64,000 nucleotides of DNA from Eucommia ulmoides (Eukaryota > Streptophyta > Magnoliopsida > Garryales > Eucommiaceae). A program made the position numbers and the translations under genes. The first letter of the stretch is position 1; every line of letters begins with the position of its first letter. Location of the stretch: assembly GCA_016647705.1 (NCBI GenBank), contig CM028335.1:23910905-23974904 (forward strand), read 5' to 3'. Shown piece after piece: positions 5,269 through 59,789 of the stretch. The notes below the pieces were generated by a model. It saw only the letters and a program-made list of their open reading frames with translations. It was not told where the DNA came from and did no database searches.

Positions 5269-5689
5269 TATTGATTCCAAGATTTTGATGAACAATTAAG
5301 TATTGATGTTTTTAGTGGAAAAAAAAGTTTTATCGAGTGTTTCATATTTATAGTTTCATTCATATGATTAAGAAGAATACCTCATAAAGAAAACATAAAG
5401 GGTGCAAGATGGACGTAATGAAGATGTGAAGAGTTTTGAAGACCTTGAAGAAAAATAGGTGAAAACAACTCTCAACTTATATACTCTTAATGCAATTCGA
5501 ATTATGATCACACACGACACTTAAAATGAGTTAATTATATGTGTGTCATGATAAGAAGTGATACATTTAAGATCCAAAAATGAGATTTTATATGTGCTCC
5601 TTATGTGAAATGAATTTGATAATTGACCTAATTGGAAAATATCTTTTAAAGTATAAAATTTGATTTTTCGGGTCAATTCGGTCAACGGA

Positions 5690-6010
5690 GAAAAGCAATC
5701 GGTCAACTGAATTAAATAGTGTGTTTTGGAGTTAAAATGAGGTGCTACTGATCCAATCGATCAACCGAATGAAAGTGGTTAGTCAACCATTTGAAATAAT
5801 AGTTGAATTGGCAAAGGAAGTGAGCAGACTGATCCAATTGATTAACCAAATGAAGAGAATCGATCAACCTTTTAAGTCAGCAGGTAAATTGAAGGAAAAA
5901 TGGATCACACTGATCCAATCGGTCAATCGATTGGATGTGATCGATCAAACGACTGGCCTTAAGCCAATGGTTGAATTTGGAGCTGGACAGGTCGGTCAAC
6001 CGACTGAGTC
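5690..6010 (+). promoter_or_regulatory. W-box-like array (GGTCAA / TTGACC) in LTR U3
   Basis: About ten short motifs of the type atcggtcaaccgattg occur here, including several GGTCAA or AGTCAA cores, the reverse complement of TTGAC[CT], which is the core bound by plant WRKY factors (established knowledge). The array lies about 350-670 bp before the TATA box of the same LTR. The same placement is seen in the LTRs of X1, D, D2 and the right LTR of D. That it drives expression is inference. Confidence 0.5.
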
Positions 6011-6357
6011 AGTTGAGATTTCGGAAGATTTGGTCTCTCGGTAGAAAACTATCCATTTTTTATGATTCCAAGAGAGGAATTTGGGGGATTTAAACTTAAT
6101 TAAACTATCAACAACCTATTATGTTATCCCTATCAATATGGTCCAATAATTTTAATATTCTCCTAATTTAAATGGTTTAATATTTTCTATTTTTATGGCT
6201 TTAAGTTGAAAATAGTTTTATAAACTGAATTGAGAGAGTTGAAAGTTATTTTCAAGTAAAATACACCTTAAATGAAAGGCTATCATATATGGGGTTTAAG
6301 AGTGTCATTAAGTGGCATTTCTTTGAGAAACTAACCGTTGGAGGGCTAGTTATTTGT

Positions 6358-6372
6358 CTATTTATATAGACC
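6358..6372 (+). promoter_or_regulatory. TATA box of LTR E
   Basis: The sequence ctatttatatagacctg matches the TATA region of the related LTRs, for example aggtctatatatac read on the opposite strand at about 49335. Confidence 0.55.
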
Positions 6373-7590
6373 TGTGGAAATTGAGTTGAGGACATCACGA
6401 ATAATTAGTTTTGAGCTATTCTAAGAGTGATATTTATGCTGAGAATTTTGTGAGAGGTTTATTCTAAATTATTGATCTAAAGCGCTTGTGGTTTGGCGTC
6501 ACCAACTTGAGTTCTATTGCTATTACGTCATTATCTTCAATGTTTCCCAGTAAGATCTATCTAAGATTTATTATTTACTTTGAAGCTATATTTTTATTGA
6601 CTGCTTGGTATAGGATTAATTCGAAAATCATTTTAAACTTAAAAGCCTAAAAATCTTTTTTAAATGATTTTTGTTTAATTATCTGATTATGTGCTTAAAT
6701 TGTGCTACCCACTTTATTAATTAATCAGATGCTATTTACCTCACATCGTATCTATCATATAGTAATTATTTGGGTCATTAATTGAGCATATTTGTATTGT
6801 GGTGGTAGAAGCTCCTTGGGGGAAGAAACTTACATTTTTTTGTATTTGTGAGTTTGAGCGAATTAGACACGTTTGGGACGGTATCTAGTTAGGGTAGTTA
6901 GGTTTCAATCTTCTTTTTTTTTTTTTTTGTGAAAAAGATTAAGGTTTAATCTTTGTCTTGCAAAAAATTTAGATTATTCTTTTCCTTTTAAAAGAATTAG
7001 GTTTTGATTCTCCCTGTAATAGAATTAGTGATTGTACAAGTTCTTCCTAAACTTGAGAAAATGATAAGTGTAAAAGTGTGAGGGAGTGGTTGGTTTGATC
7101 TTTATCTTATTAAAATGGTTTGGTTTTTATTCTACCAGTAATAGAATTAGGTTAGTTTTCAGCCTGTTAAAAAAATAGGGTTATTCTTGAGCCTATGAAA
7201 TAGATAATTGTAAAGGTTGATTCCAAGCCTGTGAAAAGAATCGAGATTGCAAGGGTTTTGTTCTTACCTGGTAAAGGAATTAGGGGTTTAGTGGATTCTT
7301 AATCTCCGTGGAGCTCAAGGGACTAGATGTAAGTAAGAGTAGGATACCGAACTAGGATATATTCTTGTGTACTGCATTATTAATTTTCTATCTTGTGTTT
7401 TGGTGTGCACTTAGTATTAAACACATATCCACTGCGTATAATGATAATAATCTATTCATGAAAATTGATTATTTGTGTTTAAAGGAATTAATTATTTACT
7501 GGTGTCACTCCACGAGTCTACTAGGATGTGATCTTAATGTTTAGCACAAAGTAAATTAGTTTATTAACAGTTTTTCTAGTTAGGTTAACA

Positions 7591-10919: not shown

Positions 10920-13244
10920 TGTTGACCCAGTGAGCTACCGAAAAGGAGGGTGAATTGTGTAGTTTTAAAAATTACAGAATGTAACACTTCAAAAATCAAA
11001 CAATTAATTTTATCCTAAAATTAATTGTTATCTTTTATAGCAGCAGATATGTGTTATCAACTAGGTGCACACCCAAACAACAAAATATAAACAATATAAA
11101 TAATGTAGCACACAGAAATTTAAATTGGTTCAGCAAACTACTATTGGCTAATCTAGTCCCCCGATCTCCGTGAAGAATCGCACCCACTAAACTCAAGATT
11201 CCTTTAAAAGTAGGAACCAAAGTCTCACAAAGATTCTTTTCGTAGGCTCAAAATCAACCTTCACAATTCATTTTCACAGGCTAAGGAATAACCTCTATCT
11301 TTTTACCAGGTGGAAGATTAATCTAATTCTATTACAGGAAGAATCACAACCTAATTCTTTTTATACCTTAGGCTCAAGAATTAAACCTCACACAAACACG
11401 CTCCAAATATCCTTTACCCGGTAAGGATTGAACTGTTATAATTCACTCACAATTATATAAAGGAATAATTAAAACCTAATCTTTTTATACTCTAGGCAAA
11501 GATCAAAACCTAAATCTCTTTACCAGAAGAGATTTAAACCAGGTACCTTTAATTAGGCTCTCCTAGTAGTATCTAATCCGACACTCAACTCACTAATAAC
11601 AAATAATTGATAAGTAATTTCCCACTTGGAGCTTCTAGCACCCTAGACAAATTCATACTCAATTAATGTCCCGATACTAGTGATAGAAAAGTGAGAATTT
11701 CAAAATCTGATAAATAATGATGGGTTGCAAGCAGTTAAGCACGTAATCAAATTTTCTCAAGAAATTATTTCAAAAATAATTTTCAACAAAAAATCCAGAA
11801 AACAATTTAAAAGATCAAATTTCAAATAATAAAAAATAGAATCAAGCAACAATTAATAGTAAGTAATTTGGAATGATCTCACCAGGATTCTACTCGAAAG
11901 AATAATGATTAGAATAGCAATGACACTTCAGATCGATAGTAGCAATAATCCACAACAAATATTTCTCAAGAACAAATCTCATGAAAGATCTCACAATGCA
12001 CTTAGTATGATTACTCTTAGAAAGCACAAAAGCTTAATAACTTAGAATAATTGGGAGTATCTTGATTAATGATCATATTAACATATGAAATCCGCAAGTC
12101 TATGTAAAGCCACTCGAAACAAGCCCTAAAATGACTAGTTCCCATAAATCATGACATTTAATTATACCAATAGACCTTCTATACCATAATGATTCATTCC
12201 TGGTATAATTTGCTTAAAATATCTCTTAAAATATTCAATTAAGTCCTTTAAACTTTTACTCAATCTTAAATAGATAAGATAAATAGAATTATATGTATTA
12301 AATTGAGAAATATCAAAATTACTTGTACCATATCTATAGAGATAATTAAATATTAATTAAATAACTCAAAACATATCAGATCCCTAAGATATCTTGCATA
12401 TCTTAACAATAAAACGACTAGTAACGGCTATTTTTGGAATAAAATCTAAAATTCCATAAAATCCTGAAACAGCTCCATCTGTTGACCGATTTTAAGGCCT
12501 ATCTGTCGACTATCCGATTCAGAATATAGCCCAAGCCAAAAACTCTTTGTCCATTGGTTGACCTCCCATATTTATCTGTTGACTGAATTATTCAAAGAGT
12601 TTTACAAGTCAACTTATCTGTCGATTTAGAGATCCAGAGAGTTTCTCTTTTGGCCATAGGTCGACCTACATGTTGACCGACCGATTCAGAGAGTTCTTTT
12701 CGAAAGCATAGGTCAACTTACCTATCGGCCGAACAATTCAGGGAGTTTGCCTCATAAACACAGGTCGACTTACCTGTCAACCGACCATTACTGGAACACC
12801 TCTCCTTAATTTACTTTCATTCAATTTTTTCGACGTTTTTTACCCTTTAACCGATTTTTTTTCTCAGTTAGTTCCACTAAAATCTGAAATTTAATTTTAA
12901 TCAATTATTTTTATTTTTTTTTCAATTACACATAGGAGAAAATAATTTAACTAAATTAAGATCCTATAAAAAACACACATAATTTTTAAAAATATTTTGT
13001 GTCGTATGTAATCCTAACTGGGATATATTAAGAGTTGAAATTTAACTTGAGTTGTTTTTCCTAAGTTATTCAATTTTTTCAAACTCTTAATCTTCTATTA
13101 TCTTTGTCATCATATTTAGTATTGTCACAATATCTTCATGATCATTTTTACCACTGGAACTAATAAATTGAAACAATCAATAAAATTGTTAGTTCCACAA
13201 AAAATATCAACATTTAATTGTCCATCAAAATCTTAGGATCAATA
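10920..13244 (-). repeat. Left LTR of X1
   Basis: On the plus strand it runs from TGTTGACCCAGTGAGC to ..cttaggatcaata; the same order of blocks is present in D, D2, D3 and E. A motif array with about six TTGAC[CT] cores on either strand lies at 12478-12800 and a TATA-like region at about 12095. The minus frame at 11035-11220 is an LTR by-product. Confidence 0.8.
12478..12800 (-). promoter_or_regulatory. W-box-like array in X1 LTR
   Basis: Repeated motifs such as ctgttgaccgatt, ggttgacctccc, ctgttgactgaatt and atgttgaccgaccg lie upstream (in the element's sense) of the TATA region at about 12095. Position and motif match the arrays in the other LTRs of the family, although the spacers differ. 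Confidence 0.5.
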
Positions 13245-15203: not shown

Positions 15204-15463
15204 GATAACTCAAGAAATTTAGCCTAGATAGAGAACCAATCGAAACCCTAGAGAATAGAGAGAGAGAACCAACCGTTTTGTGAAGCAAGGAGTCACCAAA
15301 TCTCAAATCCAAGCCCTAAACTTATAGATCCGTCCCAAAGGTCTTCAAATCCAATCCCAATCGAACTAATTTCATGAAGTTCATGATTGAACGGACTTGG
15401 GAGATGAAGGGTGTTAGAGAGAAAAGGGTTTTAGATTCGGTTAAAATGAAATGAACGTACACA

Positions 15464-40439: not shown

Positions 40440-40606
40440 GTAAAATAAATTTTAACTTCATTTTTTATTATTATTATCATTACTATTTAGCTATTTATTA
40501 TTTATTTATTATTATTCATTATTATATTTATATTATTATTATTATATTATTATATTATTTTATTCTTATATTATTATTTTATTTATTTATTTATTATTTT
40601 TACTAT
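40440..40606. repeat. ATT/ATTT-rich low-complexity tract
   Basis: Mixed (ATT)n and (ATTT)n runs, ending exactly where the left LTR of element D begins. The open frame over it is low complexity and not a gene. Confidence 0.85.
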
Positions 40607-41559: not shown

Positions 41560-41762
41560 TGTTGGCCCAGTGATCTACCTAAGAAGAGGGGTGAATTAGG
41601 TAGATATAAAAATTTAAGCAAGTATTTATCCTTCAACACTTAAAGAATCAAATAATTAATTTAATCCTAAATTAATTATTATTTCTATATAGCAACAATT
41701 AAGTGTTATATAAACTAGGTGCACAGCCGAACAACAAAAAATAAATAACGTTAGAATGCAGC

Positions 41763-43290
41763 TGATAGGTATGAAAAACCTATCTATTTCTAAACCAGAT
41801 TTGTTAGTTCTCAAGCATTTTAGTTATATTTAATTGTGTTTTAGTGTGTTTTAGTGTAGAACAGGGAAATGACATCAAAGGGCGAGAAACAAGTGAAAAC
41901 GGTGGAGAAACGGTGAAAAAAATGTGCAAAACAGGGTTTCGGTGAATGAAGACCACCGCCTAAGCGGAAGTTCCACCGCTTAGGCAGAAAAGAGGCAGAA
42001 TGTTGGAGTGCTGAAAGGCTGAACCACCGCCTAGGCGAGAAAACCACCGCTTAGGCGAGAAAAGATCAGAATGGTATGCCCGCAGCCACCGCCTAAGCGG
42101 AAAAACCATCGCTTAGGCGAAATCACCGACAGACGTTAACCGACTTAAAGCCACCGCCCGAGCGATGAACTACCGCTTAGGCGGTGACACTCTGCATAGA
42201 AATATCTGTTTTCAGATATTTTGAAGATATTTCCAACCCTTACCTATAAAACCCCTTTCTCCCCCAATTGCTAAAGAGGTTAGAACCCCTTACACGTGAG
42301 AGGAGGCTCCGGTTGACAACTAGAGAGTTCTCCTTCCACCTTAGTTAGGATTAGGAAGTAGATTAGATTAGTTTAGGAAGTGTTCTTGGCCAATCATTGA
42401 AGAGACAAAAGAGGAAGTTTATCAACGAAAAAGAGGAAGCTCGGGAAGATCGTTCTTTGGCGAAAGTGGACTACTCCACTTTGAGATTTGGCTTTTCTTC
42501 CCTTGTTTCCATCTTTGTATTTAAATATTTATAGTTGATAATGATGATCTCCTCTTGATTTATGTTTTATTGGTTAAGAACATATTAGTGTAATTTAGAG
42601 ATTAGTTAGGAAAAGGTGTAGTTGTGTAAATACTCGTTTGGTTTAATATATGTTTCTTTAACGGTTGCTGTTTTAAATCCGATTGTGTTTATCATTTGAT
42701 GAAGATCTTAATATATTTGTAACGGTATTAGTATTGGATTTGAGAATCTAGGGTTTGACATTCGGGAGAGGTAACTCTGGATTTGGACTAGGGTAAACAC
42801 ATCGTTACGACCTAACGACCCAGGAGGGCGTTAGTTAGTGTGCAGTCGATGACGTTGGGTCAAGAATCACGCGGCCTAGAGTCGTTAAGACATTTAGGAA
42901 GACCTCTTTGTCGACACAAAGTCGCGTATTCTCCCGTCTTACACTCAGAAGAGGTAGCGGAGGAGTTTACGAATCGAGATTGTCGGATACCTAAACTCCG
43001 TTATTGTTAATCGAACGAAATCAAATGTGTATTAAGTGAACGAAATCTATCCCTAATTAATCAACCTAGTTAGAATTAACCCACTAATTGTAATTTAGCT
43101 TAGTTTAATTTCAATTCACGTCTTTTGTCGTCAAGATAACACGAGACTACGTCAATTGTGGTATTCAATTCAATTATTCACACTTTTCTCTGTGGGAACG
43201 ATATCAGATCTTCAAAGATCCACTATATTAAAACTTTAGACCTCGTATACTTGCGAGCGTACGTAGGCGTGCACAAAATTGCACCTACCA
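41763..43290 (+). repeat. Left LTR of C
   Basis: TGATAGGTATG..CACCTACCA, 1528 bp. Motif array at 41950-42190 and TATA box at about 42243. Downstream blocks such as gggtttgacattcgggagag match the Y LTR at 26402 onwards. Confidence 0.9.
41950..42252 (+). promoter_or_regulatory. Paired CCACCGCCTAAGCGG array and TATA of C LTR
   Basis: Eight motifs in four close pairs (near 41953/41970, 42023/42042, 42088/42106 and 42152/42170), each an imperfect palindrome of the form CCACCGC-YTARGCGG. They end about 55 bases before tacctataaaacccc (42242-42256). The right LTR has the same array at about 47955-48190. Confidence 0.6.
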
Positions 43291-43296
43291 AGTTTT

Positions 43297-43314
43297 TAGC
43301 GCCGTTGCCGGGGA
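43297..43314 (+). other. Primer binding site of C (tRNA-Asp type)
   Basis: tagcgccgttgccgggga, one mismatch from the tRNA-Asp-complementary sequence, six bases after the LTR end. Confidence 0.85.
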
Positions 43315-43989
43315 TTAATGTGAATTTTATTTGAATATTGCAAAAGAAACACGGTATCGGCCCAGAACTTAAGTTTTATATAGAAAAAGAAAATGTATCG
43401 TTTCCTAGTCCGTCAACACACCAAGTCTTTGGCGTTGTAGACATGAGATTAGTATGAATTCTAAGTTGATATTGCGACTAAGTGGTCAAGTGTTAATCCT
43501 GACATTTATATTTGTTTTTTTTTTTAATTTTTATTTTTATTTCATTGTGATAATGAGATCAAGCGGTGCGAGAAATGATGAAGATTGGAACTCTTAAATC
43601 TTAATCCCGAGATGGAGCTTGTTGAAAATGATAAGGACTGAGAGGAGACGCCGACTTCAAAGCCATGATCTTGATCCGACTAAGTATTTCAGCCCAAATT
43701 CCTTGTCTATGGGGAATTTTGGTGAAAAATACTTAGTAACACAAAAGTCCAGCTGGGGACGATAACTCAAGCGCTATTATTTTGAAATGAAACTTAGGGT
43801 ATCAAATTACCCGATTTTTGTTACTATTTATTTGATTATTTATTCTTTTTGGAAGTCGGTATAGCTTCGGAACGTGTTCGGCAGTGAATTTAGGAGTGTG
43901 GATGCTTGGGGAAGTATTCTAAATCTAAACACGTTGAACAAGCGAAGTGAAAACGTAAAGGGTGGAGCCGTCTTTTGAAAATTTGAGAA

Positions 43990-44360
43990 AAACATTAAAG
44001 TGGGAGCTAAAGGCCCACCGCCCAAGGGGTAAACCACCGCTCAGGCAGTAAAAATACAGAGAAGGTGTTTTTCAGGTAAAAAGGCCCACCGCCCAAGCGG
44101 TGAACCATAGCTCAAGCGGTAAAAATATAGGTTGCACCAAATTTTCAAAATATGCTCCACCGCTTAGGCGGAAAATCCACCGCCTAAGCGGAATTTCGTC
44201 AGAAGGTTTGATTTTAAAGAAAATAGTTCCACCACTCAAGCGGTGAATCCACCGCCTAAGCGGTGAACCTTCTGCTATTAAAAACAGCCCGTCGCTCAAA
44301 AATTAAAAACGCAAGGTTCCCTCCCCAAATCCTCCACCTTCTCTCTAAAACTTCACTCCC
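43990..44360 (+). promoter_or_regulatory. Putative internal promoter of the C cassette
   Basis: A second set of eight CCACCGCc.aGCGGtg motifs in four pairs (about 44015-44268) is followed within ten bases by ctattaaaaac, a TATA-like box at about 44274, and by a CT-rich leader with ttccctccccaaatcctcca at about 44317. This repeats the LTR layout in miniature. Possible 5'-UTR intron: gtaagt at 44531 and ttgtag ending at 44888, just before the ATG at 44892. Promoter and intron are inference. Confidence 0.4.
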
Positions 44361-44891
44361 AAACCATTCCAAATCTCTAAAATCATCCGTCCATTACCAA
44401 AAGTGGTCATTTCCATCACGATTCAACCTCCAAGAATCGGATTTCAACCCCTATTTCCGAAAATCAAGGGTTTTGAGTGAAAGGTGCGATTTCTTCGTTT
44501 TCTTTTGATTGGACCATTATTTCGCAACAAGTAAGTTTATTTTACATTACATTTAGTTTAGTTGTTGAAATTATTGGTTGGTTTGCATGATTCTATCAAA
44601 GAAATCAATGGATTTTGAAATTTTGCCCAAAAACCTTTAACCCTAGTTTCGCGATTTCGAAGTTCAATGGGTTTTTGGTTTGATTCTTGATGATACACAT
44701 GTTTAATTGGATTGGTTGAGTGTCTAAACTAATATAGGATGGCACATTTGTTAAATTTGTTTGAAAAATTCAAATGGGTATTCGTTTTGGGATGTATGTG
44801 TTCATGACAAAGTGATTAGGGAGGTTTATGTTTTTCAAATGTTCAAATATGATGAGGTTGTATTGGGTTTTTGTGATTGTGATTGTAGGAA

Positions 44892-46028
44892 ATGGCGAAA
44901 AGAGTAGCTAAGAAGAGGGCCAGAGGAGAAGGGTCGGGTTCAAACCCAAGGGTGCCGACCGATGTAGACTTTGATGCCACCCGCTTTGTGTCAAAACAAG
45001 CGGTGGAACATTTCAAAGAACACGAAAAGCATCGTGCTTGCATACTTCAATGGGGATTCGGTCCGATTGAGGAGCTCCCGGAAAAATTTCGGAATGAAAT
45101 CTGAAGCGGCCACTGGGAGCAATTCTGCAAATCGCCACCCCCAGGTGAAATCTCTTTAGTCAAAGAGCTCTATGAAAATGCTACCGAGGCCATCGACGAT
45201 CTAGTAAGGGTCCAGAACCAACCCATTATCTTTAGCCCCGACTTCGTAAACCATCTCTTTGGGCTTTCGGCACCGGAGTCACTTGAAAGACAGGAACCTT
45301 CTTTACAAAGGGTCATCCAAAAGATCACATCTGGCTCGGTAAAGTGGAAACATCAGGGGCCGAACGTCGCTACATTTTCAGTGAGATGCCTCAAGCCGGT
45401 TTCGAAAATCTGGCACAACTTCATCTGTGGAAGCCTCCTGCCGACATCACACTTGTCAGACATCTCAAAGGACAGGGCCTATTTGATCTATAAAATCCAG
45501 ACCGGACAACCCATAAACGTTGGATTTCTGATCTATTCATCAATTCTTCATGCTATAAAAAGGGTAAAGGGTGGGCTCCCGTTTCCGTCACTTTTGACCC
45601 ATATATTCAGATTAGCTGATGTGATTGTATCTGGGGGAAGCCAATGTGAACCTATTGCTCCACTTATGCTGTCAGCGATAAATCGGTTGTGGAAGAATGG
45701 GGCGCAAGAGGCACCTGAGCCTGAGTCGGAGGAAGGGGAAGAGCAACCAGACGATACGGCTGGACCTTCTGGAGCCCGAGCTGAAAACTCCCAAGAGAGG
45801 ATAAATAAAAAGCTTCAGATGGTCCTCCAGAATCAATACAAGATTGTCTCTTTCCTGGACCAATTTTTGAGGCAACAAGATCGAGTCCAACGGAAGATTT
45901 GGGAGGGCCTTGGCCTTGAGATGGACGATTTCCCACTGATGCCATCTGTACCACCACATCTACTCCAGAGACCACATTCTCCTTCTCAAAGTGATGATGG
46001 TGATGATTCGTCTTCAGGTGAACAGTAG
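44892..46028 (+). pseudogene. Plant-transposon-protein family gene carried by C
   Basis: Two frames of the same family. The first (44892-45104) begins MAKRVAKKRARGEG, a basic start typical of the family, then DxDATRFVSKQAVEHF. The second (45381-46028) holds the core: FICGSLLPTSH at 14-24, KDRAYLIYKIQTGQPINVGF at 30-49, LPFPSLLTHI at 66-75, then a Glu/Ser/Asp-rich tail. The LLPxSH..IxxxxAxLIYxIxTGxPINVG..I...IxHA....GLPFPSLLT pattern is characteristic of the family annotated as 'putative plant transposon protein'. Its biochemical function is unknown. The copy is broken at one or two places. It replaces gag-pol in this element. Confidence 0.7.
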
Positions 46029-47750
46029 GGAATAAGCCTTATTCCCTAGGTATGTGTTCAACCCATTTTTTGTGCAAGCATGCTATATGTTTATTGGGAT
46101 CACTGATATTGGAACACTTTCGTGTTCAGGCCTGGGTGGTATGGATTAGATGATAGTTTAGTAGATGTTCATCCATTTTGACTTTTTGTAGAAAATGATG
46201 AACAATTATTATTATTTTTTGAACAAAATAAAAAAATTTGTTGTACAGACCTTTATTTATTTATGTATTATGAATGTTTTAATTTTTAAATTTTTAGTTT
46301 AGTTAGTTTAATTTTTTGTTTTTAAATGTTTAGTGATTAGATTAATATATGTATGTTAGTATTGGAATTAGTTTAGTATTGTGTATGTATAAAGTTGTGT
46401 TTGCATGATTAGATGTGAGTTCATTTGGTCCAAGACCCGATGATGAGAATTATCCCCTAATTGCATATTGAGGTCGGGGGTAATACCTTCCTGGTGTGTT
46501 TTGTGTGCTTAACATGTCGATTGGGTAAAAATTATCTCGATCCAAAAATTGCACGACATTTGAACTCAGTGAATAATTATCTAAACAATTAGACGTTGAT
46601 TATTCGATATTAAGTTCATAATAGAAAATGAGGAAACTAGAACTTGATTTGGGGAAAACTTGAGGCAGAATCCTAGGTAAGGTAATTCTGGAGACGTGAT
46701 TTAGGCCGTCAATTTTTCGCTTGATCCGTTGTAGCTAAACCTGAAAATATTTATTCCTTATTTCCCCTGTCGAAGCCGATAACGTAATCAATTCTGAAAA
46801 TGTTTCAAATACTCTTTTCATTTAGATTTTTCCTAAACCAAAGTCGCTAAGCCTAATTTTCAAAATTGAATGAAATCAAGTGAGCGGTAGGGTTTCGGAC
46901 GAATTTTTATTGATTCGGTATTAGTATATTCACTTGTCACTTTTGTATTTCTTTTTGCACACTCCTAAAATAAGTTTGGGGGTGTGTTTCTATCATTTCT
47001 TTTTACATATTCCTAAAATTTTACAAGTTCGAATAAGTTTGGGGGTGTGTTTTTCTAACTTCTTTTTGCACTCTCCTAAAACTGTAATAATTCGAATTAA
47101 TTTAGGAATATGTTAAAAAAAAAAAAAAGTGAATATTATTTTCATTTTCTTCTCTTTTGACAAGTAAATACAAGAATTTTCGTTTCTTATTCAGAATTGT
47201 ACTTTAAATTGTGGTGGGGTCATGAGAGAGGATAGCGACAAGCGATTTTACCTCGGGTATCGATCGATTAAACCAATTTTCTATTTTTATTCTAGTGATA
47301 CCTGTAGTTGTTCTCAAAAGCCAAACCAAGCCCTATTGATTTCTGTGATTATCCGAGCCTACATTAGTGGATAGTAGACTCCAATCAAGCATATGGTTTT
47401 CCTGAATCCTTTAAACGGTTTAAATTGTAAGCTTAACAATTGAATAATCGAATCCGGTATTTGACTAGTTATACATTTGAGTTCTCACACACACACTTCA
47501 CATGGATCTAGAATGGTTTTTATTGACATTGATAGTTGAAATTCTAGAACACCACTTGGTGTGGGATGCTTCCCGAACTTGATCCGATTTCAGGATGTTG
47601 AGGGAGGAACAAATTGGTCATTTCGATTGAACTTTATATTTACATGTATATACTTCTTTTGTGATATTTTAATTTTTCATTTTTAGTTGATTAGTTCGTT
47701 AGTTAGTTTAGTTTAATGTTAGTGTTTTGCTCGAGGACTAGTAAAATTCT
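46029..47750 (+). other. Non-coding 3' half of element C
   Basis: It begins with a hairpin-capable ggaataagccttattcccta at about 46030, the counterpart of the cttgggagacaacccaagg hairpin in Y and A. It then shares the Y/A tract (aactcagtgaataattatct, acttgatttggggaaaac, tctagaatggtttttattg). Three tandem units of a tttggg.gtgtgttt block are at 46940-47110. No gene. Confidence 0.7.
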
Positions 47751-47764
47751 GAGTTTGGGGGTAT
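47751..47764 (+). other. Polypurine tract of C
   Basis: gagtttgggggtat immediately before the right LTR. Confidence 0.8.
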
Positions 47765-48334
47765 TGATAGGTATGAAAAACCTATCTATTTCTAAACCAG
47801 ATTTATTAGTTCTCAAGTATTTTAGTTATATTTAATTGTGTTTTAGTGTGTTTTAGTGTAGAACAGGGAAATGACATCAAAGGGTGAGAAACAAGTGAAA
47901 ACGGTGGAGAAACGGTGAAGAAAATGTGCAAAACAGGGTTTCGGTGAATGAAGACCACTGCCTAAGTAGAAGTTCCACCGCTTAGGCGGAAAAGAGACAC
48001 AATGTTGGAGTGTTGAAGGGCTGAACCACCGCCTAGGCGAGAAAACCACCGCTTAGGCGAGAAACGATCAGAATGATATGCCCGCAGCCACCGCCTAAGC
48101 GAAAAAACCATCGGTTAGGCGAAATCACCGACAGACATTAACCGACTTAAAGCCACTGCCCGAGCGGTGAACCACCACTTAGGCGGTGACACTCTGCATA
48201 GAAATATCTGTTTTCAATTATTCACACTTTTCTCTGTGGGAACGACATCCGATCTTCAAAGATCCACTATATTAAAACTTTAGACCACGTATACTTGCGA
48301 GCATATATAGGCATGCACAAAATTGCACCTACCA
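47765..48334 (+). repeat. Right LTR of C, shorter copy
   Basis: Starts TGATAGGTATGAAAAACC and ends ..gcacctacca, both as in the left LTR, with less sequence between. Confidence 0.88.
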
Positions 48335-49332
48335 GCAGCGCACCACGATGTATACTGGTTCATCAAGCTACTCTTGGCTAATCCAGTCCTCTGTGTCCCA
48401 CGAAGAGTCGCACCCATAAAACCACTAAAATTCCTTAAACAGGTATGAACGAAACATTTACACAACTATTCTTTTCACAGATTCATAATCAACCTTTACA
48501 ATTCCCTTTTTACAGGTTAGGGAATAACCTCTATCTTTTTAACAGGCTAAAGATTAACCTAAATCTTTTGTACTTAGGCAAAGAATCAAACCTCACAAAA
48601 ATCACTCCAAGTATCATTTTCACCGGTAAGGATGGAACCGTTACAAATCACATAAACTAATTTTATTCACGAAGAATTAACACCTATCTCTTTTCACGAA
48701 AAAGAGTAACCGAACATTTTTATGCCTTAGGTAAAGATCAAACCTCAATCTCTTTACCGGAAGAGATTGAAACCTAGCTACCCTTGATTAGATATTCCCA
48801 ACAATATCTAATCTGCACACAACTCACCAATTACAATAAATTGATAAGTTTCTTCTTACTCGAAGCTTCTACCGCCTCAAGTCTATTTAAACTTAATTAA
48901 TGTCCCAATAAATACTCGTGATAGAATTTAGTGAGAAATTCAAAATCTGATTATAAAATAAGTGGGTAGCTCAAAATTGAGCACGTAATCAGATTATCGC
49001 CAAAATCGTTTTAAAATGATTTTTATGCACTTTAAAGTTCAAAAACGATTTTACAATGATCTAGAATCCAAGAAAGCAATAATAATATAAAATAACAATT
49101 AAGAACAAAAGTTTGAAACGATCTCACTATGATACCACCAAACAAATGAAAATTGAATCGCAGTAAAGCTTATTAGATTGGTGACAACAAAATTCTCAGC
49201 ACTTATTCTCAAGAATTTCTCTCAAGAATGATCTCACAATAAACTCTCAGTATAATATCAGAATGATGACTCTCAGAAAGTTCAGGAACTGATTTGTTCT
49301 TGATAGAATGATCTCTTCATAAGTGAAAAATG

Positions 49333-49349
49333 CAGGTCTATATATACTG
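49333..49349 (-). promoter_or_regulatory. TATA box of D2
   Basis: The minus strand reads cagtatatatagacctg. Confidence 0.55.
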
Positions 49350-49714
49350 ATTTAAAACAAGTCATCTAATGGTTAGTTCCTACAAAATAAGACATTTAAA
49401 TGCTCATATAGACCCCATATATTAATATGACTCGATCATGGTTCAATTCACTTAATTATAGCATTTAAATCATTTAATTTAGTTCTCAAAATATTTCACA
49501 TTCTCAAATCGAAAAGATAGGAAGTATTAAATAGACTAAATTAACAAACACTCAAAATAAGTGTACCATATCTATAAGTATATCTAAATAAGAATAATAT
49601 ATCTATAAAATATTCAAATCCACAGAATATTTCCAAAATATCAGCCAAAAAATGGCTAGTAACGGCTATTTTTAAATAAAATCCTCGAAATCCTCAAATT
49701 GTGAAATTGCACAG

Positions 49715-50040
49715 TCAGTTAACTGACCAAACCACCATCAGTCGACCGATCATTTCAAGTTGTAGCCTAAGAAATTTTCATACGCCAATCGACCGATCCC
49801 CCATGAGTCAGTTGACCGATTAATTCAGGATGCTCCCCAGGCCATTTTTTGGCCCTCGTCGGTCGACCGATCATCGACGGTCGGTTGACTGATCGATTCC
49901 AAGAGTTCACTTTTAATCCATCGATTGACTGATCTCTCTTGATCGGTTGACCGATTGATTCAGAGACTACTCTATTTCCCAGCCTATGCTTGTCGGTTGA
50001 CCAATCCTACTTGGTCGGTTGACCGATCAATGCTGGAAGA
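49715..50040 (-). promoter_or_regulatory. W-box-like array in solo LTR D2
   Basis: Six TTGAC[CT] cores on the plus strand, most as ggttgaccgat, plus several gtcgaccgat variants. The array lies about 380-700 bp upstream (minus sense) of the TATA box at about 49337. Confidence 0.55.
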
Positions 50041-50497
50041 ATTTTTTCTTAGTTCATTTCAACTCCAATCTTCAACGTTTTCGATCATTTAACTGATTTC
50101 TTTTCTTGGTTAACTTAATTGACACTATTAATCAATTTTAAACACTAATATTTCTTAAAGTCAATTTTTCTTTTTCAATTTCATATTTGAGCAAATATGT
50201 GAACTAATTAGGACCCTAACAAAAATACACATAAATATAAATCATTTTTGTGTTGTGTGTGATCCTAATTGGGATACATTAAGAGTAAAAAATGACTTGA
50301 GTTGTTTTCACCTAAATTCTTCAGAATCTTCAATCTCTTAATGTCCGTCTATTTGTCTATCTCTTAGCATCCTTAGCAATTACTTCATAATAACATCAAC
50401 AATAGAACTTTTATATTGAAACACTCAACAAATTCATTAGTTCTACCAAAAACATCAACACTTAATTGTCCATCAAAATCTCGAGATCAACAAGAAC

Positions 50498-51899
50498 AAT
50501 AGCTTGGAAAGGTCTCACCGAGAAAACACCGAAGATTAAAAAATAATCGCAATATAGCAGAAATCGGTGATGCCAAATCAAAAGTGCTTTAGATGAAGAA
50601 CGTCGCAAGAATTTATCTTGAAAATCTCAGCGTAAAAACCTCTCTTAGAAAAGCTTTGAATTGATGTTCTTGATGTAATTAACCTCAATCCGTGGGTCTA
50701 AATATATGGACTGATAACAAGCCCTCCAATGGTTACTTTTCAAAAGATATGCCTCTAAAAATCACTCTTAGACCCCATATAATAATATCTTCTTCTGGGG
50801 TAATCCACTTAAAAATAACTTCTAAATCTCTCAAATAAGTCCATGAAATATTTATCAATTTACAATCATAAAGATATGAGGTATTTAAATATTTAAATTG
50901 AGATAATCTGAAATTATGTGAACCAATTCAATAGGGATATTAAAATACATGTATCATATCTTTAATAAGATCAGATCCCCCAAATTTCTCTCTTGGAATC
51001 ATAAAAAAATGGCTAGTTTTTTACTGAAAGACCAAGTTCCTTAAAATCTCAACCAAAATAGTCAGTTGACCGACCCCAGGTGTTCGGTTGACCAATTGAC
51101 ACAGCACTGAAACCAGGCCAAGGCTTTACAGGCAGTTGGTTAACCGATTTCACCAAATGGGTTGACTGATTGATGCAAAGAGTTTCTCCAGCCAAACTTC
51201 AACCCAATCGGTTAATCGATTTCCTCCCAATCGGTTGACTGGTTGTTTCATAGCCTTTCCCTACCAAAACCTCAAATCCAATCGATTGACCAATTGCCTT
51301 CGTTTAGTTAATCGATCATTGCATGGACATTTTATTTTGCTTCGAAAACCTCAATGATTCAAACGGTTGACCAATTCCTCTTAATCGGTTGACCGATTAA
51401 AGCTGGGTGGTCATTTCCTTCTCCAATTCTGCCCCAAAACTCACTCTTTGATTCAATTTACCGATTGCTTTTCTCGGTTATCTGAATTGACCCTAAAATT
51501 CAACTTTTTACCTTATTTTCAATTAGGTTAATTATCATTTTCAATTTAATATAAGGAGCACATATCAAATCAATAATTAGGATCCTAAATACTATCTTAT
51601 CAATATCAAAACACACATAAAGATAACTCATGAAATAGTATCGTGTGTGATCCTAATTCGGGTTGCATTAAGAGTATTGAGTTATTTTTACCTAATTTCT
51701 TCAAGGTCTCCACACCTCTTCATTTCTTCAATGCGTCCATTTTTATACCCTGAACTCTTTCTTCATAATGTATTCACATAATCAATAATATGAAACTCTT
51801 TTCTGAAATACTCAACAAACACATTAGTTCTACCAAAAATATCAATACTTAATTGCTCATTGAAACCTAGGGATCAACAATCTCTCCTTTTTTTTATCG
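50498..51899 (-). repeat. Left LTR of D, second part
   Basis: Continues D's LTR after D2: aatagcttggaaaggtctca matches ccatagcttggaaagatctc at about 58629 in the right LTR. It ends ..gggatcaaca. It holds a W-box-like array at 51060-51400 with about seven TTGAC[CT] cores. Confidence 0.8.
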
Positions 51900-52925
51900 T
51901 GACAATTAACTTTGATCTTTTATTTTATTTTATTTTTAAAATTGTAACCACGCTCCCCCTAAATCTGAGGAGGGGTATTTAAACTCATTTAATCATAAAC
52001 ATGAAAACATAATCAAACAATTCAAAAGATATTCAATAAAAGCCCAAAAATCAATATAACGATAATAATATTCAACAAAAGCTTAATGTAACCAATTCAA
52101 CCACGATCTATCTTTAATTAGTGCAATACGTAGGCAAACAAATTCCTAAACATCAACTAACTCATTTAAACATCAACTTCACCCCCTTTGTTATGTCAAA
52201 AAGTGGGGATAAATAACCAAATCAATATTTCTTTTAACACCCTTGATAAATAGTATGATAAAAATTTCTTTAAAAAAATCATAAAATCTTGATTTTCAAC
52301 AATGAGGATAAAAATTATTTTCAACACTAGAATATATGTGGATCATCATAATAATTAGATATTAAAGCATCAAAGATCATATTTAGATAATAAACTAATT
52401 ACCACTTAGTCTATCTAGATCAAGTACCACAATCCTAGACTAACTATTACAAACCAAGGTGCCACGGTAAGACTTGTTCAGTTACATAACCAAAATGAGA
52501 ATGACAAAACAAGAAATCTAATGTGGTCCCTATCCTATAAATGGAAAGTATGGTCCCAGTGGACTAGTGGCCAGTTGCTGTGGGTACTGATTACCAGGCT
52601 GCACACCTGAGCTCAAGGGCATCTGTTGATAATATGATATAGATGGTCCTGCCCCTGATGACCCTGCTACAGTGGATTCTCCAAAGGATTGTTGCGCTCC
52701 GAAGGTAGTGTGCCAACTATACAGCTGTAGGGTGCTAAACTACTATTGGCTACTAAACTGCGGGTTCTGCATGAATTGGAACATGTGTTCCATGCTACGT
52801 GTAATCCTCCCAAACCCAACTTTTATAGTTTTAGCAAGCCTCTTGTATCCGCTTTCCATGGACACCCTTATCTCCGCCATGTTATTTTCGATCCCATATA
52901 TTCTATAATCAATCATCTTTATGTA
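51900..52925 (-). other. Polypurine tract and 3' non-coding region of D
   Basis: The minus strand carries aaaaaaaaggagagat directly before the LTR. Beyond it the sequence is non-coding and parallels 13245-14384 of X1, including the ctccccctaaatctgaggag (about 51952) and gtggtccc.atcctata blocks. The frames at 52672-52982 have no domain. Confidence 0.65.
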
Positions 52926-53940
52926 TTACTGGAGTTCATCGACTTGATTCCTAAGCATATCAATCTTCTTATTCGAGCTTAGTTCTTCTTCTTCTTCTTC
53001 TTCTTCTTCTTCTTCTTCCACTATCATTCTCTCTATCTTCTCCATTTTTTCCACCCACCTATTTCTCTTGAATTTATACCCCATCAAAATACAACTACCA
53101 ACATTTATCCAAGTAGGGGTCATCATGAAAAAATTACTTTCTTCATGGTCATCGTCAAATCCGAAAAAATCAAATATTCTTTTAATTACATCACCATAGG
53201 GTATCACTCTTGAGGGTTTATTTAAATGATACTTCATGTGCTCAAGCATAATGTGGGCTATATCAAGTTTTCTACTCTCAACAATTTCATTTAGCAAATG
53301 TAAGTCAAAATCATTAACACTTGCATAACTCCCTCCTCTAGGAACAATTGAATAAGTAATCATCGAATGAATTAGACAATTCTCAAGTGATAGTGATCCC
53401 ACGCTATCATCAACCGAACCAAAGTTATTAGCATTCTCGCTTCTCCTAAAATTCGCCGCAAGCCAATGAGTGGTGTTGTAAGGAAAAACATCTCATTTGT
53501 TGAACTTCAAAATGTCTCTAAGACCATCCTTATCAAATCTAATTTCAACCCCTTTAACAAATGACCTCATTTGTTCATCTCTAATTGGAAGATTACTATA
53601 AAACATTATTACCCAATGGGACATCCATTCATTGTTTTCGGAAAGAAAGTCGGTCCAAGCCAATTTCTTAACATACTTCTCAAGATCGATATTTTTCTTT
53701 TTAAATCCAACAAAATCAACGGGTTTACAAAAAACGACCTTTCGATTTGAAAACTCATTTTTTTATCTCATTTCATCCACTTTGCTTTCAAAAACAACAA
53801 AAGCAACGAGTTTACAACAAATGACCTTTCGATTTGCCAACTCATTTTTGTATTTCATCTTATCCTCTTTGCTTTCAAAATGAATAGTGTCAAATTTAGG
53901 CTTTCATAGGCAAGGTTGTTTACTTCCAGGCATTTTTTCT
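52926..53940 (-). pseudogene. Plant-transposon-protein family ORF carried by D
   Basis: The open part (52926-53402, 158 residues) has the same landmarks as the X1 protein: SIVPRGGS at 18-25, NDFDLHLLNEI at 30-40, LDIAHIMLEHMKYHL at 46-60. The C-terminal part has a run of about 13 Glu from a (TTC)n repeat (plus strand 52982-53020), then a short coiled coil. Sequence continuing to about 53940 corresponds to the N-terminal part of the X1 protein. The copy is broken in several places. A TATA-like box and motif array lie upstream at 54203-54340. Confidence 0.6.
52982..53020. repeat. (TTC)n microsatellite in an ORF
   Basis: About 12 TTC units; read on the minus strand they encode the poly-Glu run of the D ORF. 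Confidence 0.95.
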
Positions 53941-55194: not shown

Positions 55195-57092
55195 TGTTGG
55201 CCCAGTGAGCTACCCAAGATGGAGGTGAATTGGGTAGTATTAAAAATTATCAGAATATAACACTTCAAAAAATAAATAATTAATTTTATTCTAAAATTAA
55301 TTATTATCATTATAGCAGCGGATATGTGTTATCAACTAGGTGCACACCCAAACAACAAAATATAAACAATATAAATAATGCAGCACACAGAAATTTATAC
55401 TGGTTCACCAAACTACTCTTGGCTAATTCAGTCCTCCAAGCCCCTACAGAGATTCGCACCCACTAATCACTAAGATTCTTTTAAACATGCAGGAACCAAA
55501 CTTTTACACAATGATTCTTTTCGCAAGCTTAGAATCAACATTTATAAATTCCTTTTCCCAGACTTAGGAATAACCTCTTCTTTTTTCCCGGCTCAAGAAT
55601 AACCTTATCTGTTTACAGGATAAAGATTAACGTGATCCTTTCATAGGTTAAGGATCAAACCTAATTCTTTTATAACTTACGCTAAGAATCAAACCGCACA
55701 ATCACTCCAAGTATTATTTTCTCAGGTAAGGATGGAATCTTTACAATTCACTCATAACTGATCCTAATCAGGAAGAATCACACCTAAGCTCTTTTCAACA
55801 GGAAAAGAGTAACCTAACCTTTTCGTACTCTAGGAAAATATTAGACCTCAATCTCTTTACAAGAAGAGATCGAAACCCAAACTTATTAGAAATTCCCAAT
55901 AATATCTAATCCGCACATAACTCACCAATTACAGAATTGATAAGCTTTTTCCTACTCAGAGCTTCTATCACCCTAGATTAATTAATACTCAATTAATGTC
56001 CCGATACTAGTGATATAAATAAAGTGAGGAAACAAAATCTAATTATAATAAAGAATACGGATAGCGCAATTAAGCATGTAATCAAATTAACACACAAATC
56101 ATTTTTAAAAGATTTTTATGCTTTTAAAGTTCAAAAATTATTTCTCAAAAAGATCAATTTACCAAGCAAATAATAATAATAATAAAATACTCAATTAAAG
56201 ATTGCTTGGAACAATCTCACCAGGAAAACACCAAATAGATTGCACGTAGTATCACATGACAGCTTTGATCGGTGACGCTAACTCAAATAGCTCTTTAACT
56301 CAAGAACTTCTCAATAATCGATCTCACAATTAATCTCTCAAAATAATATCAGAATGATAACTCTTAGAAAATCTTAGGAACCGAATAGTTCTTGATATTG
56401 TGTGTATTGTCTTCTTGTAATGTGAAATCAGTAGGTCTACATATAAGGAATTAGAAAAGGCCTTCCAACGGCTAGTTTTCAAATAATAAGTATCTAAAAA
56501 GCACTTATATACCCTATATATCATTATGACTTAATCCTGGTATAATTCACTAAATAATATATTTTAGCCATAGGTCGACTTATCTGTCGACCGAACGATG
56601 CAGCAACTTCTCCTTTTAAGCATTTGTTGACCGACCAGTTGACTGCTCAGGCTGTAACATCTCTCCTTAATCCGATTTTAATTCATTTTCTTCAATGTTT
56701 TTATTCATTTAACCGATTTCGTTTATCGATTAGCTCCACTAAAATCATAAATTCAATTTTAATTTATTATCTTTATTTCTTTTTCAAATACACATAGGAG
56801 CAAATGATTTAAATAATTAGGATCCTACAAAAACACACATAATTTTAAAAAACATTTTGTGTTGTGTGTGATCCTAACTAGGATACATTAAGAGTTAAAA
56901 TTTAACCTGAGTTGTTTTCCCTAGGTTCTTTAATTTCTTCAAACTCTTAATCTTCCATCATCTTTAACATTGTCATAATATTTTCATGATCATTTTCATC
57001 ACTAGAACTAATAAACTGAAACACTCAATAAAATCGTTAGTTCCACCAAAAACATCAACATTTAATTATTCATCAAAATCTTAGGATTAACA
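55195..57092 (-). mobile_element. Solo LTR D3 in the gag region of D
   Basis: tgttggcccagtgagctacc to ..ttaggattaaca, about 1.9 kb, flanked by aagat (55190-55194) and aaaat (57093-57097), a one-mismatch target duplication. The host sequence on the two sides joins as cataaattcaagat / gattcttaagaat, which matches uninterrupted X1 sequence at 16518-16545. Only a short motif array remains, at 56570-56650. Confidence 0.82.
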
Positions 57093-57655: not shown

Positions 57656-59744
57656 TGTTGGCCCAAAGAGCTAACCAAGAGGGAGGCTGAATTGGATAGT
57701 AACAAAATTTTAAACAATTTAATCTTTCAATACTTAATTATCAAAAAATTAATTTTTCCTAAATCAATTATTATCTTCGTTACGCAATGGATAAGTGTTT
57801 AATTCTAGGTGCATACCCAAAAACAATATAATAAAAATAAAGAATTCGGCACACCAAGATATAGCTTGGTCCAACAAGCTAGTCTTGCCTAATCCAATCC
57901 CTCGAACTCCACGGAGATTCGCAACCTCTAAATCCTTGATTTCTTTAACAGTACGAACCAAACCCTTACAACGATTATTTTTCGAGGCTCATAATCAACC
58001 TCTACAATTTTTCTTTTTCCAGGCGTAGGAAAAACCTTATCTTTTTACTAAGCTAAAGACTAACCTAATTCTATTACAGGAAGAATCAAAACCTATTAAA
58101 GGAAGGATCAAAACCTCACTACACTCACAAGTATCATTTTCACTGGTAAGGATTTAATATTTATAATTCACTCAAAATTTATTTAATTACAAGGAGAATC
58201 AAAACCTAGTCATTTTTAAGGGAAAAGAATAACCTAACTTTTTTATTTAGGACAAAGATCAAACTCTAATATTTTTCACAGAAAAAAGATTGAAATCCAA
58301 TTACCCTGACTAGACACCAGCCCAACCGTGTCTAATCCACTCAAACTCACAGATACAGAAAAATATGGGTTTCTTCACACAAGTAGCTTCTACCACCTCA
58401 ACATAGATACACTCGATTAATTTTCCAAAATTTACTACGTGATAGATATAATGTGAGGCAAATTAATATATTATTAATAAACAATATGGTTAGCACAAAT
58501 TAAAGCACGTAATCTGATAAACACACAAAAATCGTTTTAAAAAGATTTTCAGGCTTTTACGTTTGAAAAAGTTTTTGTAATGATCTTAAATCCAAGCAGG
58601 CAATAATAATATGAAATCAAAATAAAGAACCATAGCTTGGAAAGATCTCGTTGGGAAAACACCGAAGAGTGAAACAGAATCGCAATATAGCGCAAGTCGG
58701 TGACGCCAAATCAATAGTTATTTAGATTAAGAACGTAACAAGAATCTCTCAAAAATCTCAGCGTAAAAATCTCTCTTAGAAAAGCTTAGAACTGATTTTC
58801 TTGGTGTAATTAACCTCAATCCCGCAGGTCTACATATACAGACTGATAACAAGTACTCCAACGGCTACTTTTCAAAAGATATGCCTCTAAAAGGCAGTCT
58901 TAGACCTCAAATAATAATATCTTTCAATTATGGGGTAATCCACTTAAAAATAACTTCTAAATCTCTCAAATATGTCTATGAAATACTTTCCAATTAACAA
59001 TCATAAATATAGAAAGTATTTAACTATTTAAATTGAGATAATCTTAAATTATGTGGACCAAATAAATAGGGATATTAAAATATATGTACCCTATCTTTAA
59101 TAAGATTAGATCCCCTAAATCTCTCCCTTGGAATCATCAAAAACGGATAGTTTTCGACTAAAATACCAAGTTCTTTGACATCTCAACCAAAATAGTCGAT
59201 TGACCGACCCCTGGTGTTCCGTTGACCGATTGATATAGCATTGAAACCAGGCCAAGGCTTCACAGGCAGTTAGTTAACCAATTTCACCAAATCAGTTGAC
59301 TGATTGATGTAGAGAGTTTTCCCAGCCAAACTTCAACCCGGTCAATTAATCGATTTCCTCCCAATCAGTTGAACAATTGTTTCAAAGTCTTTTCCTACCA
59401 AAACCTTAAATCCAATCGGTTAACGAATTGCCTTCGTTCGATTGACCAATCATTACAGAGACATTCTATTTTGCTCCGAAAATCTCATTGATTCAAACGG
59501 TTGACTGATTCTTCTTAATCAGTTGACTAATTGAAGTTAGGTGTCCATTTCCTTTACCAATTCTTCTCCAAAACTCACTGTTTGATTCTTTTTACTGATT
59601 GTTTTTCTTGGTTATCTGAATTGACAATAAAATTCAACTTTTTACCATATTTTCAATTAGGTCAAATATCATCTTCAATTTCACATAAAAAGCACATATC
59701 AAATCAATAATTAGGATCCTAAATACTATCATATTAATATCAAA
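57656..59744 (-). repeat. Right LTR of D, incomplete at its outer end
   Basis: Matches the two pieces of the left LTR in order, uninterrupted, which confirms that D2 was inserted in the other copy. A W-box-like array with about six TTGAC[CT] cores is at 59190-59530. The match to the left LTR stops at about 59744, before the expected end. Confidence 0.8.
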
Positions 59745-59789
59745 AGGTTTAGGTACTAGAGAAATTCTTAAAGTTTGGGGGTTGGTTAT
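59745..59789 (+). repeat. Short fragment shared with 4330-4378
   Basis: tactagagaaattcttaaag followed by tttgggggttgg matches tgctagagatattcttaaag and tttggggg near 4330. It lies between the broken end of D and the chromovirus LTR. Confidence 0.55.

What the first reader, a model, noticed from the sequence alone, without database searches (positions are those of the whole stretch)
49715..50040. W-box-like TTGACC arrays at a fixed place in Copia-type LTR promoters
Six LTRs of one family (E 5690-6010, X1 12478-12800, D2 49715-50040, D left 51060-51400, D right 59190-59530, and a shorter one in D3) carry arrays of motifs around ggttgaccgat, with about six or seven TTGAC[CT] cores each in the fuller copies. 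The arrays lie roughly 350-700 bp upstream of the TATA box. Spacers and motif order differ while the core persists, which is what selection or gene conversion on a binding site would produce. TTGAC[CT] is the WRKY-factor W-box core, so these LTRs could be stress- or defence-responsive.
Basis: partly seen in the sequence, partly recalled or inferred. Interest (0 to 1): 0.75.

Follow-up and report, generated by a model that had tools for sequence, protein, structure and literature searches.

The report
Palindrome arrays in plant Sirevirus LTRs
What looked like a row of plant defence-switch (W-box) sites is a row of 16-base mirror-image DNA motifs of a kind already described in the promoters of one group of plant jumping genes, so it is largely a known feature, although the mirror motifs do appear to have been kept by selection.

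Summary
In detail: TTGAC[CT] is enriched in the U3 of five of six related LTRs, 336-369 bp upstream of a shared TATA-like site in the four fullest. The unit is not the W-box. It is a near-palindrome of about 16 bp (sense AATCGGT-CA-ACCGATT), often in pairs 21-23 bp apart (13 of 34 neighbour distances; random placement mean 2.0). Only 24 of 40 scored dyads contain the W-box core GTCAA. A McDonald-Kreitman-like contrast shows dyads decaying faster than spacers between the two LTRs of one insertion, but better conserved than spacers between subfamilies. The signal comes from the arms; the core alone shows none (p=0.75). The core's persistence within that insertion is what its lack of CpG predicts. 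The literature names this feature: the Sirevirus 'repeated motif' with CGG-CCG dyad symmetry, Vitis version CGGTCGACCG. Other Sirevirus hallmarks are present, several decayed. Best reading: an old CpG-rich enhancer array of a non-autonomous Sirevirus-like Copia family, possibly bound by a dimeric host factor. WRKY binding is possible but untested, and the pattern of constraint does not single it out. New member of a known kind.

The parts
5676..6027 (+). E LTR dyad array: 5 curated pairs of near-palindromes, A-B spacing 21-22 bp, pair-to-pair 73-81 bp; last B site (6012) very weak
5271..7484 (+). E LTR (sense +, ends approximate), TATA-like site at 6363
   Evidence: BLAST to the other LTRs, sequence, TATA scan
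12476..12880 (-). X1 LTR array: divergent dyads, some with CG centre (3 GTCGAC in U3), no 21-23 bp pairing
10920..13244 (-). X1 LTR, 3' LTR of an element running about 17629 to 10920
   Evidence: 5' LTR end and PBS at 17094-17079; start read (scripts used 13247)
49713..50119 (-).
48335..50492 (-). D2 solo LTR, main part; its last part is at 41560-41762 beyond a nested element; 5-bp target duplication GTTCT on both sides; inserted inside LTR Dl
   Evidence: scripts used 50496 as start
51060..51487 (-). Dl LTR dyad array: 6 curated pairs, the first weak; A-B spacing 21-23 bp, pair-to-pair 73-89 bp
   Evidence: RNA fold z -3.25
50493..51879 (-). Dl, 3' LTR of element D, first part; continues at 40605-41559
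   Evidence: PPT-like AAGGAGAG then AT/TG junction; intact AGGGGGAG at 51953-51960; scripts used 50494-51883
56569..56740 (-). D3 LTR, short divergent array (2 TTGACY, 2 GTCGAC in U3)
55195..57092 (-). D3 solo LTR nested in the internal region of D; flanks ATTTT / ATCTT, 4 of 5 alike
   Evidence: scripts used 57098 as start
59194..59621 (-). Dr LTR dyad array: 6 curated pairs, the first weak, with the same spacings as Dl
57656..59760 (-). Dr, 5' LTR of element D (its start is truncated, upper end approximate); decayed PBS junction CAATTAGCACTAGAGA
   Evidence: 85.6% identical to Dl over 1124 bp

Best explanation
The arrays are the dyad-symmetric 'repeated motif' (RM) cluster of a Sirevirus-type Copia LTR, in an old, apparently non-autonomous family. 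Each RM is about 16 bp, AATCGGT-N2-ACCGATT, with a CGG-N4-CCG signature; in four LTRs RMs tend to come in pairs two helical turns apart, five or six pairs per LTR, upstream of the TATA box. Shown here: the dyads, their pairing and position, their CpG richness, and constraint on the whole dyad between subfamilies. Inferred: while the family was active the array worked as an enhancer bound by a host factor that recognises the dyad, probably as a dimer, with neighbouring dyads on the same face of the helix; after insertion its CpGs were methylated and decayed. The W-box cores are a by-product of the dyad's CA centre, usable by WRKY factors but not what was conserved.
For: Conservation is nearly symmetric about the dyad axis: T3/A14 39/35, G6/C11 32/32, T7/A10 39/39 of 40. 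Degenerate dyads are far above shuffles: E 5, D2 9, Dl 7, Dr 6 against means of 0.06-0.07, 0 of 500 shuffles (the pattern was taken from these sequences). Pairing: 13 of 34 neighbour distances between sites scoring 10/14 or more are 21-23 bp; random placement mean 2.02, maximum 7, 0 of 2000. Constraint: Dl vs Dr dyads 33/144 and spacers 34/280 different; Dl vs D2 41/143 and 138/256; D2 vs E 36/126 and 128/229. Within/between 2x2 p=2.5e-5 for dyads, 4.8e-6 for arms, 0.75 for core. CpG per kb in array vs rest of LTR: 36.6/10.8 (E), 54.1/14.8 (D2), 35.0/11.4 (Dl), 28.0/16.7 (Dr), 37.0/8.8 (X1), 49.7/11.6 (D3). Published RMs: Vitis CGGTCGACCG, Osr10 CGGTCTGACCG, Osr8 CGGTCAGACCG, clustered from 200-400 bp into the LTR over 300-500 bp, at least 8 copies per element (PMC2829016 passages); here the arrays start about 373-405 bp into LTRs E, D2 and Dl. 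PBS, PPT and C-rich end signals resemble Sireviruses.
Against: No pol was found among the ORFs scanned, so lineage rests on LTR hallmarks, several of them decayed or judged by eye. X1 and D3 have no 21-23 bp pairs (0 of 6 distances) and score 0 for the degenerate dyad pattern. Counted without a consensus, palindromes exceed shuffles only in D2; in the other five LTRs 65 to 353 of 500 shuffles reach the observed number. The shared TATA-like site is about 350 bp from the array; [quoted passage not shown] One comparison with outside-defined columns (Dr vs E, columns from D2) is not significant (p=0.19). The constraint test rests on one LTR pair, and Dl is used on both sides of it. The aligner may register repeated dyads onto each other and so inflate between-subfamily identity. 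The polarity of the centre (CA 28, TA 8, CG 3, TT 1, TG 0 of 40) is not explained by symmetry alone. No binding or expression data.
Confidence: 0.78

Rival explanations
1. W-box arrays: the selected unit is TTGAC[CT], bound by WRKY factors, which makes the LTR defence-responsive.
For: TTGACY is enriched in five of six U3s; orientation is biased: dyad centres CA 28, TG 0 of 40, and over the six U3s 36 sense GTCAA against 7 sense TTGAC; the precedent ATCOPIA93/EVADE is said to be activated through WRKY binding to LTR W-boxes (PMC12786077 passage).
Against: 16 of 40 dyads lack the core; core-specific constraint is not seen (p=0.75, few core differences: 4 and 11) while arm constraint is strong; GTTAAC and GTCGAC centres keep the dyad but not the W-box.
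Confidence: 0.1
2. Structural or epigenetic role: palindromes form hairpins in the U3 part of the element RNA and attract small RNAs and methylation; symmetry is selected for structure, not for protein binding.
For: Dl and D2 arrays fold better than all 100 shuffles (z -3.25, -3.71), a control stretch of Dl does not (z -0.48); maize Sirevirus LTR palindromes are reported as small-RNA hotspots (PMC10760457 and PMC5311732 passages).
Against: E and Dr arrays fold unremarkably (z -1.50 and -0.95); drawing small RNAs would cost the element; the two-turn pairing suits DNA binding.
Confidence: 0.2
3. Passive minisatellite: array amplified by unequal exchange or replication slippage and homogenised, with no function.
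For: Unit spacing of about 73 bp recurs and TRF detects a 73-bp tandem repeat at 51138-51295; gene conversion would also keep repeats alike.
Against: Homogenisation should act on spacers as well, yet spacers differ at 49-56% and dyads at 24-29% between subfamilies; CGG-CCG dyads occur in 12 of the 13 RM-bearing Sireviruses of PMC2829016, whose LTRs are otherwise very diverse.
Confidence: 0.07

Closest known systems
Sirevirus LTR repeated motif (RM), above all Vitis RM CGGTCGACCG (Bousios et al. 2010, PMC2829016; abstract, passages and section 19 read)
   Same: CGG-CCG dyad, high copy number, CpG-rich cluster in the upper half of the LTR upstream of TATA; nearly the same core sequence
   Different: Here an A/T-extended 16-mer with a mostly CA centre, pairs 21-23 bp apart, TATA about 350 bp downstream, and strong decay
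Maize Sirevirus palindromes CACCGGAC...GTCCGGTG, small-RNA hotspots (passages of PMC10760457 and PMC5311732; the 2016 Genome Research paper itself was not held)
   Same: Clustered CG-containing palindromes in the cis-region of Sirevirus LTRs
   Different: Different arm sequence; no small-RNA data here; folding signal in only two of four arrays
ATCOPIA93/EVADE W-box LTR (PMC12786077 passage)
   Same: Copia LTR with W-box cores
   Different: There WRKY binding was reported; here W-boxes are embedded in dyads and no constraint specific to them was seen

Membership tests
Sirevirus LTR repeated motif | Palindromic motif with CGG-CCG core | tested here: met
   Consensus AATCGGTCAACCGATT; near-symmetric conservation in E, D2, Dl, Dr
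Sirevirus LTR repeated motif | At least 8 copies, clustered from 200-400 bp into the LTR over 300-500 bp | tested here: met
   10-12 curated dyads (some weak) over 352-428 bp in E, D2, Dl, Dr, starting about 373-405 bp into E, D2 and Dl; the start of Dr is truncated; X1 and D3 have fewer, divergent sites
Sirevirus LTR repeated motif | Cluster is CpG-rich | tested here: met
   1.7 to 4.3 times the CpG density of the rest of the LTR in 6 of 6 (Dl and D2 without their separated parts)
Sirevirus LTR repeated motif | TATA box shortly after the cluster, near mid-LTR | tested here: inconclusive
   Shared TATA-like site 336-369 bp after the array in E, D2, Dl and Dr, near mid-LTR where both ends are known (E, D2, Dl); 124 bp in D3; none found in X1; nearer TATA-like matches exist; [quoted passage not shown]
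Sirevirus | PPT AGGGGGAG, several copies, terminal one followed by AT/TG | tested here: inconclusive
   Terminal AAGGAGAG-AT/TG at Dl, two G-to-A differences; one intact octamer at 51953-51960, 74 bp before the LTR, but shuffles also give about one per window
Sirevirus | 5' LTR/PBS junction CAATTGGTATCAGAGC | tested here: met
   17094-17079 (-), 14 of 16, exactly at the LTR end of the X1 element; shuffled windows give 0.46 matches on average at the 3-mismatch setting of that call, so the position carries the weight; Dr junction decayed, 11 of 16
Sirevirus | C-rich integrase signal about 21 bp from the LTR end | tested here: inconclusive
   By eye, TTCACCTTCCTCTTGG and similar before the end of X1's 5' LTR, D2, Dr and D3; not compared letter by letter with the published alignment
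Sirevirus | Copia pol placed in the Sirevirus clade | tested here: inconclusive
   No pol to place: 25 ORFs scanned against Pfam, 22 of them from the 49 listed over the two internal regions, no pol match; internal regions about 3.9 kb
WRKY-responsive LTR | W-box cores enriched | tested here: met
   5 of 6 LTR U3s
WRKY-responsive LTR | Core itself under constraint | tested here: not met
   Within/between contrast for the core p=0.75, with few core differences (4 and 11)
WRKY-responsive LTR | WRKY binding and induction by elicitors | not testable with these tools
   No host genome and no expression or binding data in the tools

The most novel reading that the evidence does not exclude
The RM is the binding platform of one unidentified dimeric plant factor, conserved across angiosperms and recognising CGG-N4-CCG in pairs two helical turns apart; and CpG loss at the dyad centre (CG to CA, fixed before the array was amplified) added WRKY sites, so that methylation-driven decay rewired a silenced enhancer toward defence signals.
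Probability: 0.1. Interest if true: 0.65.

Novelty: new member of a known kind. Interest (0 to 1): 0.3.

Why it matters
It shows how a short transcription-factor core can look selected in dead transposons when the real signal is a larger, CpG-rich palindrome. It also gives a simple within-insertion versus between-family contrast that separates mutational persistence from constraint. For Sireviruses it adds a possible regular spacing (pairs two helical turns apart) that would fit cooperative protein binding, and makes the RM's unknown binding factor easier to look for.

Tried and rejected
Searching the window's own genome was not possible. Rfam (gathering threshold) and tRNA scans gave nothing. 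A literature search with motif letters gave 51 papers, 20 of them listed; of those 20 one (PMC2829016) looked relevant and was opened. A search for 'Sirevirus' with 'WRKY' gave 3 papers, judged only from the listing. A search for LOB-domain proteins as a CGG-CCG binder gave 3 papers, judged from the listing, so no factor is named. Other searches were seen as listings; opened from them were PMC10760457, PMC5311732, PMC11728184 and PMC12786077, passages only. A viral-contig scan for the Sirevirus LTR/PBS junction gave nothing; a scan for paired dyads gave 22 viral contig stretches, not opened. Separate deamination of GTCGAC centres in place was considered as the source of each W-box and rejected, because it should give TG and CA centres alike, and 0 of 40 are TG. 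Palindrome counts without a consensus were above shuffles only in D2. A control stretch of the Dl LTR folds like its shuffles (z -0.48).

Dropped rows: the first pairs (6 sites) of D2, Dl and Dr were left out of the 40-site counts; with them n is 46. X1 and D3 were left out of the dyad tables and the constraint tests because their sites are irregular. Curated pairs were chosen partly by spacing, so the pairing claim rests, which uses the score threshold only. Columns where masks disagree were dropped or merged. One search's three aligner settings gave the same numbers and are not independent checks. LTR starts used in the scripts are 3-6 bp off in X1, D2, Dl and D3.

Full report
What was checked. 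The window looks like plant DNA rich in nested LTR elements (inferred from its content; no genome is held for it). BLAST of one LTR against the window shows six related U3-bearing LTRs: E (+, 5271-7484), X1 (-, 13244-10920), D2 (-, 50492-48335), Dl (-, 51879-50493), D3 (-, 57092-55195) and Dr (-, about 59760-57656), plus fragments. Their nesting can be read: Dl and Dr are the 3' and 5' LTRs of element D. D2 is a solo LTR inserted in Dl, with the 5-bp duplication GTTCT on both sides. D3 is a solo LTR in the internal region of D, with flanks 4 of 5 alike. A further element (about 41763-48334) sits inside D2.

The observation. TTGACY is at chance over the whole window, but 6-8 copies lie in the first 1,000 bases of E, X1, D2, Dl and Dr where 1.1-1.3 are expected, reached by at most 1 of 500 shuffles; D3 has 2, not significant. 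In E, D2, Dl and Dr a TATA-like site in a shared AGACC context lies 336-369 bp downstream of the array; other TATA-like matches lie nearer, and X1 has none within 500 bp.

What the unit is. Listing sites against a palindrome shows that many W-box cores sit at the centre of a near-palindrome, AATCGGTCAACCGATT in element sense. Of 40 scored dyads in E, D2, Dl and Dr, 24 hold GTCAA (the W-box core read on the antisense strand). Of the other 16, 12 have TA, CG or TT centres and 4 have a CA centre with another letter in place of G; one holds an off-centre TTGACC. Mirror positions are conserved nearly alike: T7/A10 39/39, G6/C11 32/32, T3/A14 39/35; position 2 and its mirror are not (A2/T15 33/17). 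Deviations at the CpG-bearing columns 4, 5, 12 and 13 are 45 of 160, 38 of them transitions; at the A/T columns 3, 7, 10 and 14 they are 8 of 160. Dyads tend to come in pairs: 13 of 34 neighbour distances between sites scoring at least 10 of 14 are 21-23 bp, against a mean of 2.02 and a maximum of 7 in 2000 random placements; X1 and D3 show 0 of 6. In the curated set all 23 pairs are 21-23 bp apart and the pairs 62-91 bp apart, but spacing was a criterion there and E's last partner is very weak.

Literature found on the way. After the palindrome was seen, a search with the motif letters led to Bousios et al. 2010 (PMC2829016; abstract, passages and section 19 read); the constraint tests below came later. 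It describes a Sirevirus-specific LTR repeated motif: palindromic, CGG-CCG core in 12 of 13 elements, eight or more copies per element, CpG-rich, starting 200-400 bp into the LTR, upstream of a TATA box; Vitis has CGGTCGACCG. The authors found mainly stress-related matches in PLACE but no common factor.

Constraint or mutational persistence. The two LTRs of one insertion were identical at birth (established knowledge), so Dl against Dr shows decay without selection on the element. There dyads decay faster than spacers (33/144 vs 34/280; only 4 of 423 circular shifts of the mask reach this), because of the arms (29/84); the core differs least (4/60). So the persisting core in dead copies is explained by its lack of CpG. 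Between subfamilies the order reverses: Dl vs D2 41/143 vs 138/256, Dl vs E 27/114 vs 104/212, D2 vs E 36/126 vs 128/229 (0 of 398, 4 of 325 and 1 of 354 shifts reach this). With columns defined only from an LTR outside the comparison, dyads are significantly better conserved in five of six between-subfamily comparisons (p from 2.1e-6 to 0.0075) and not in the sixth (Dr vs E, p=0.19). The within/between 2x2 (Dl-Dr against Dl-D2) gives p=2.5e-5 for dyads, 4.8e-6 for arms, 0.75 for the core, whose differences are few (4 and 11). Caveats: one LTR pair only, Dl in both comparisons, and repeated motifs can draw an aligner into register.

Fit to Sireviruses. Position, copy number, symmetry and CpG density agree. 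The LTR/PBS junction (14 of 16 at 17094-17079, exactly at the LTR end), a C-rich LTR end seen by eye and the decayed AT/TG polypurine junction point the same way. Pol could not be placed: none was found among 25 ORFs scanned, 22 of them from the 49 listed over the two internal regions. Passages on maize (PMC10760457, PMC5311732) report small-RNA excess over such palindromes; here two of four arrays fold better than all 100 shuffles and two do not.

Mechanism. Most likely an enhancer array for a dimeric host factor, with paired sites on one helical face, active while the family moved and now decayed by C-to-T change. Binding, factor and methylation are inferred. WRKY use of the embedded W-boxes is possible; a WRKY-driven Copia LTR is reported (ATCOPIA93, PMC12786077 passage), but nothing here singles it out. 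Unexplained: dyad centres are CA in 28 and TG in 0 of 40, and over the six U3s sense GTCAA outnumbers sense TTGAC 36 to 7. Inheritance from one founding unit is the simplest account; selection on W-box orientation is not excluded.

Verdict. Real feature, largely explained by a published motif class; the W-box reading is demoted to a likely by-product. Interest 0.3.

Noticed in passing
14385-15209 (-), 52926-53492 (-) and 53493-53762 (-): ORFs of the 'putative plant transposon protein' family (PF20167: E 4.4e-12 above cut-off; 0.0048 and 2.3e-6 below cut-off) lie in the 3' part of the internal regions of the X1 and D elements, where Sireviruses may carry an envelope-like gene. The elements look non-autonomous (about 3.9 kb internal, no pol found). 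PF20167 is reported in an Athila extra ORF of sunflower (PMC11728184 passage).
   Followed up: partly
16011-16346 (-): A CCHC-like zinc knuckle (CFYCSKFSHYEKSC, read by eye) suggests a remnant of gag; no Pfam match.
   Followed up: partly
41763-48334: A second nested element with 95% identical end repeats carries another palindrome-like repeat, such as CCACCGCTTAGGCGG and CCACCGCCTAAGCGG, in an end repeat and in its interior (41960-42110, 44150-44280), and a PF20167 ORF at 45105-46028 (E 1.1e-35).
   Followed up: partly
10023-10755: Tandem array of 83-85 bp units about 165 bp beyond the end of the X1 LTR.
   Followed up: no
12476-12880 and 56569-56740: X1 and D3 LTRs carry a different dyad arrangement, some with CG centres (GTCGAC) and sites 12-16 bp apart, so the motif differs by subfamily.
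   Followed up: partly
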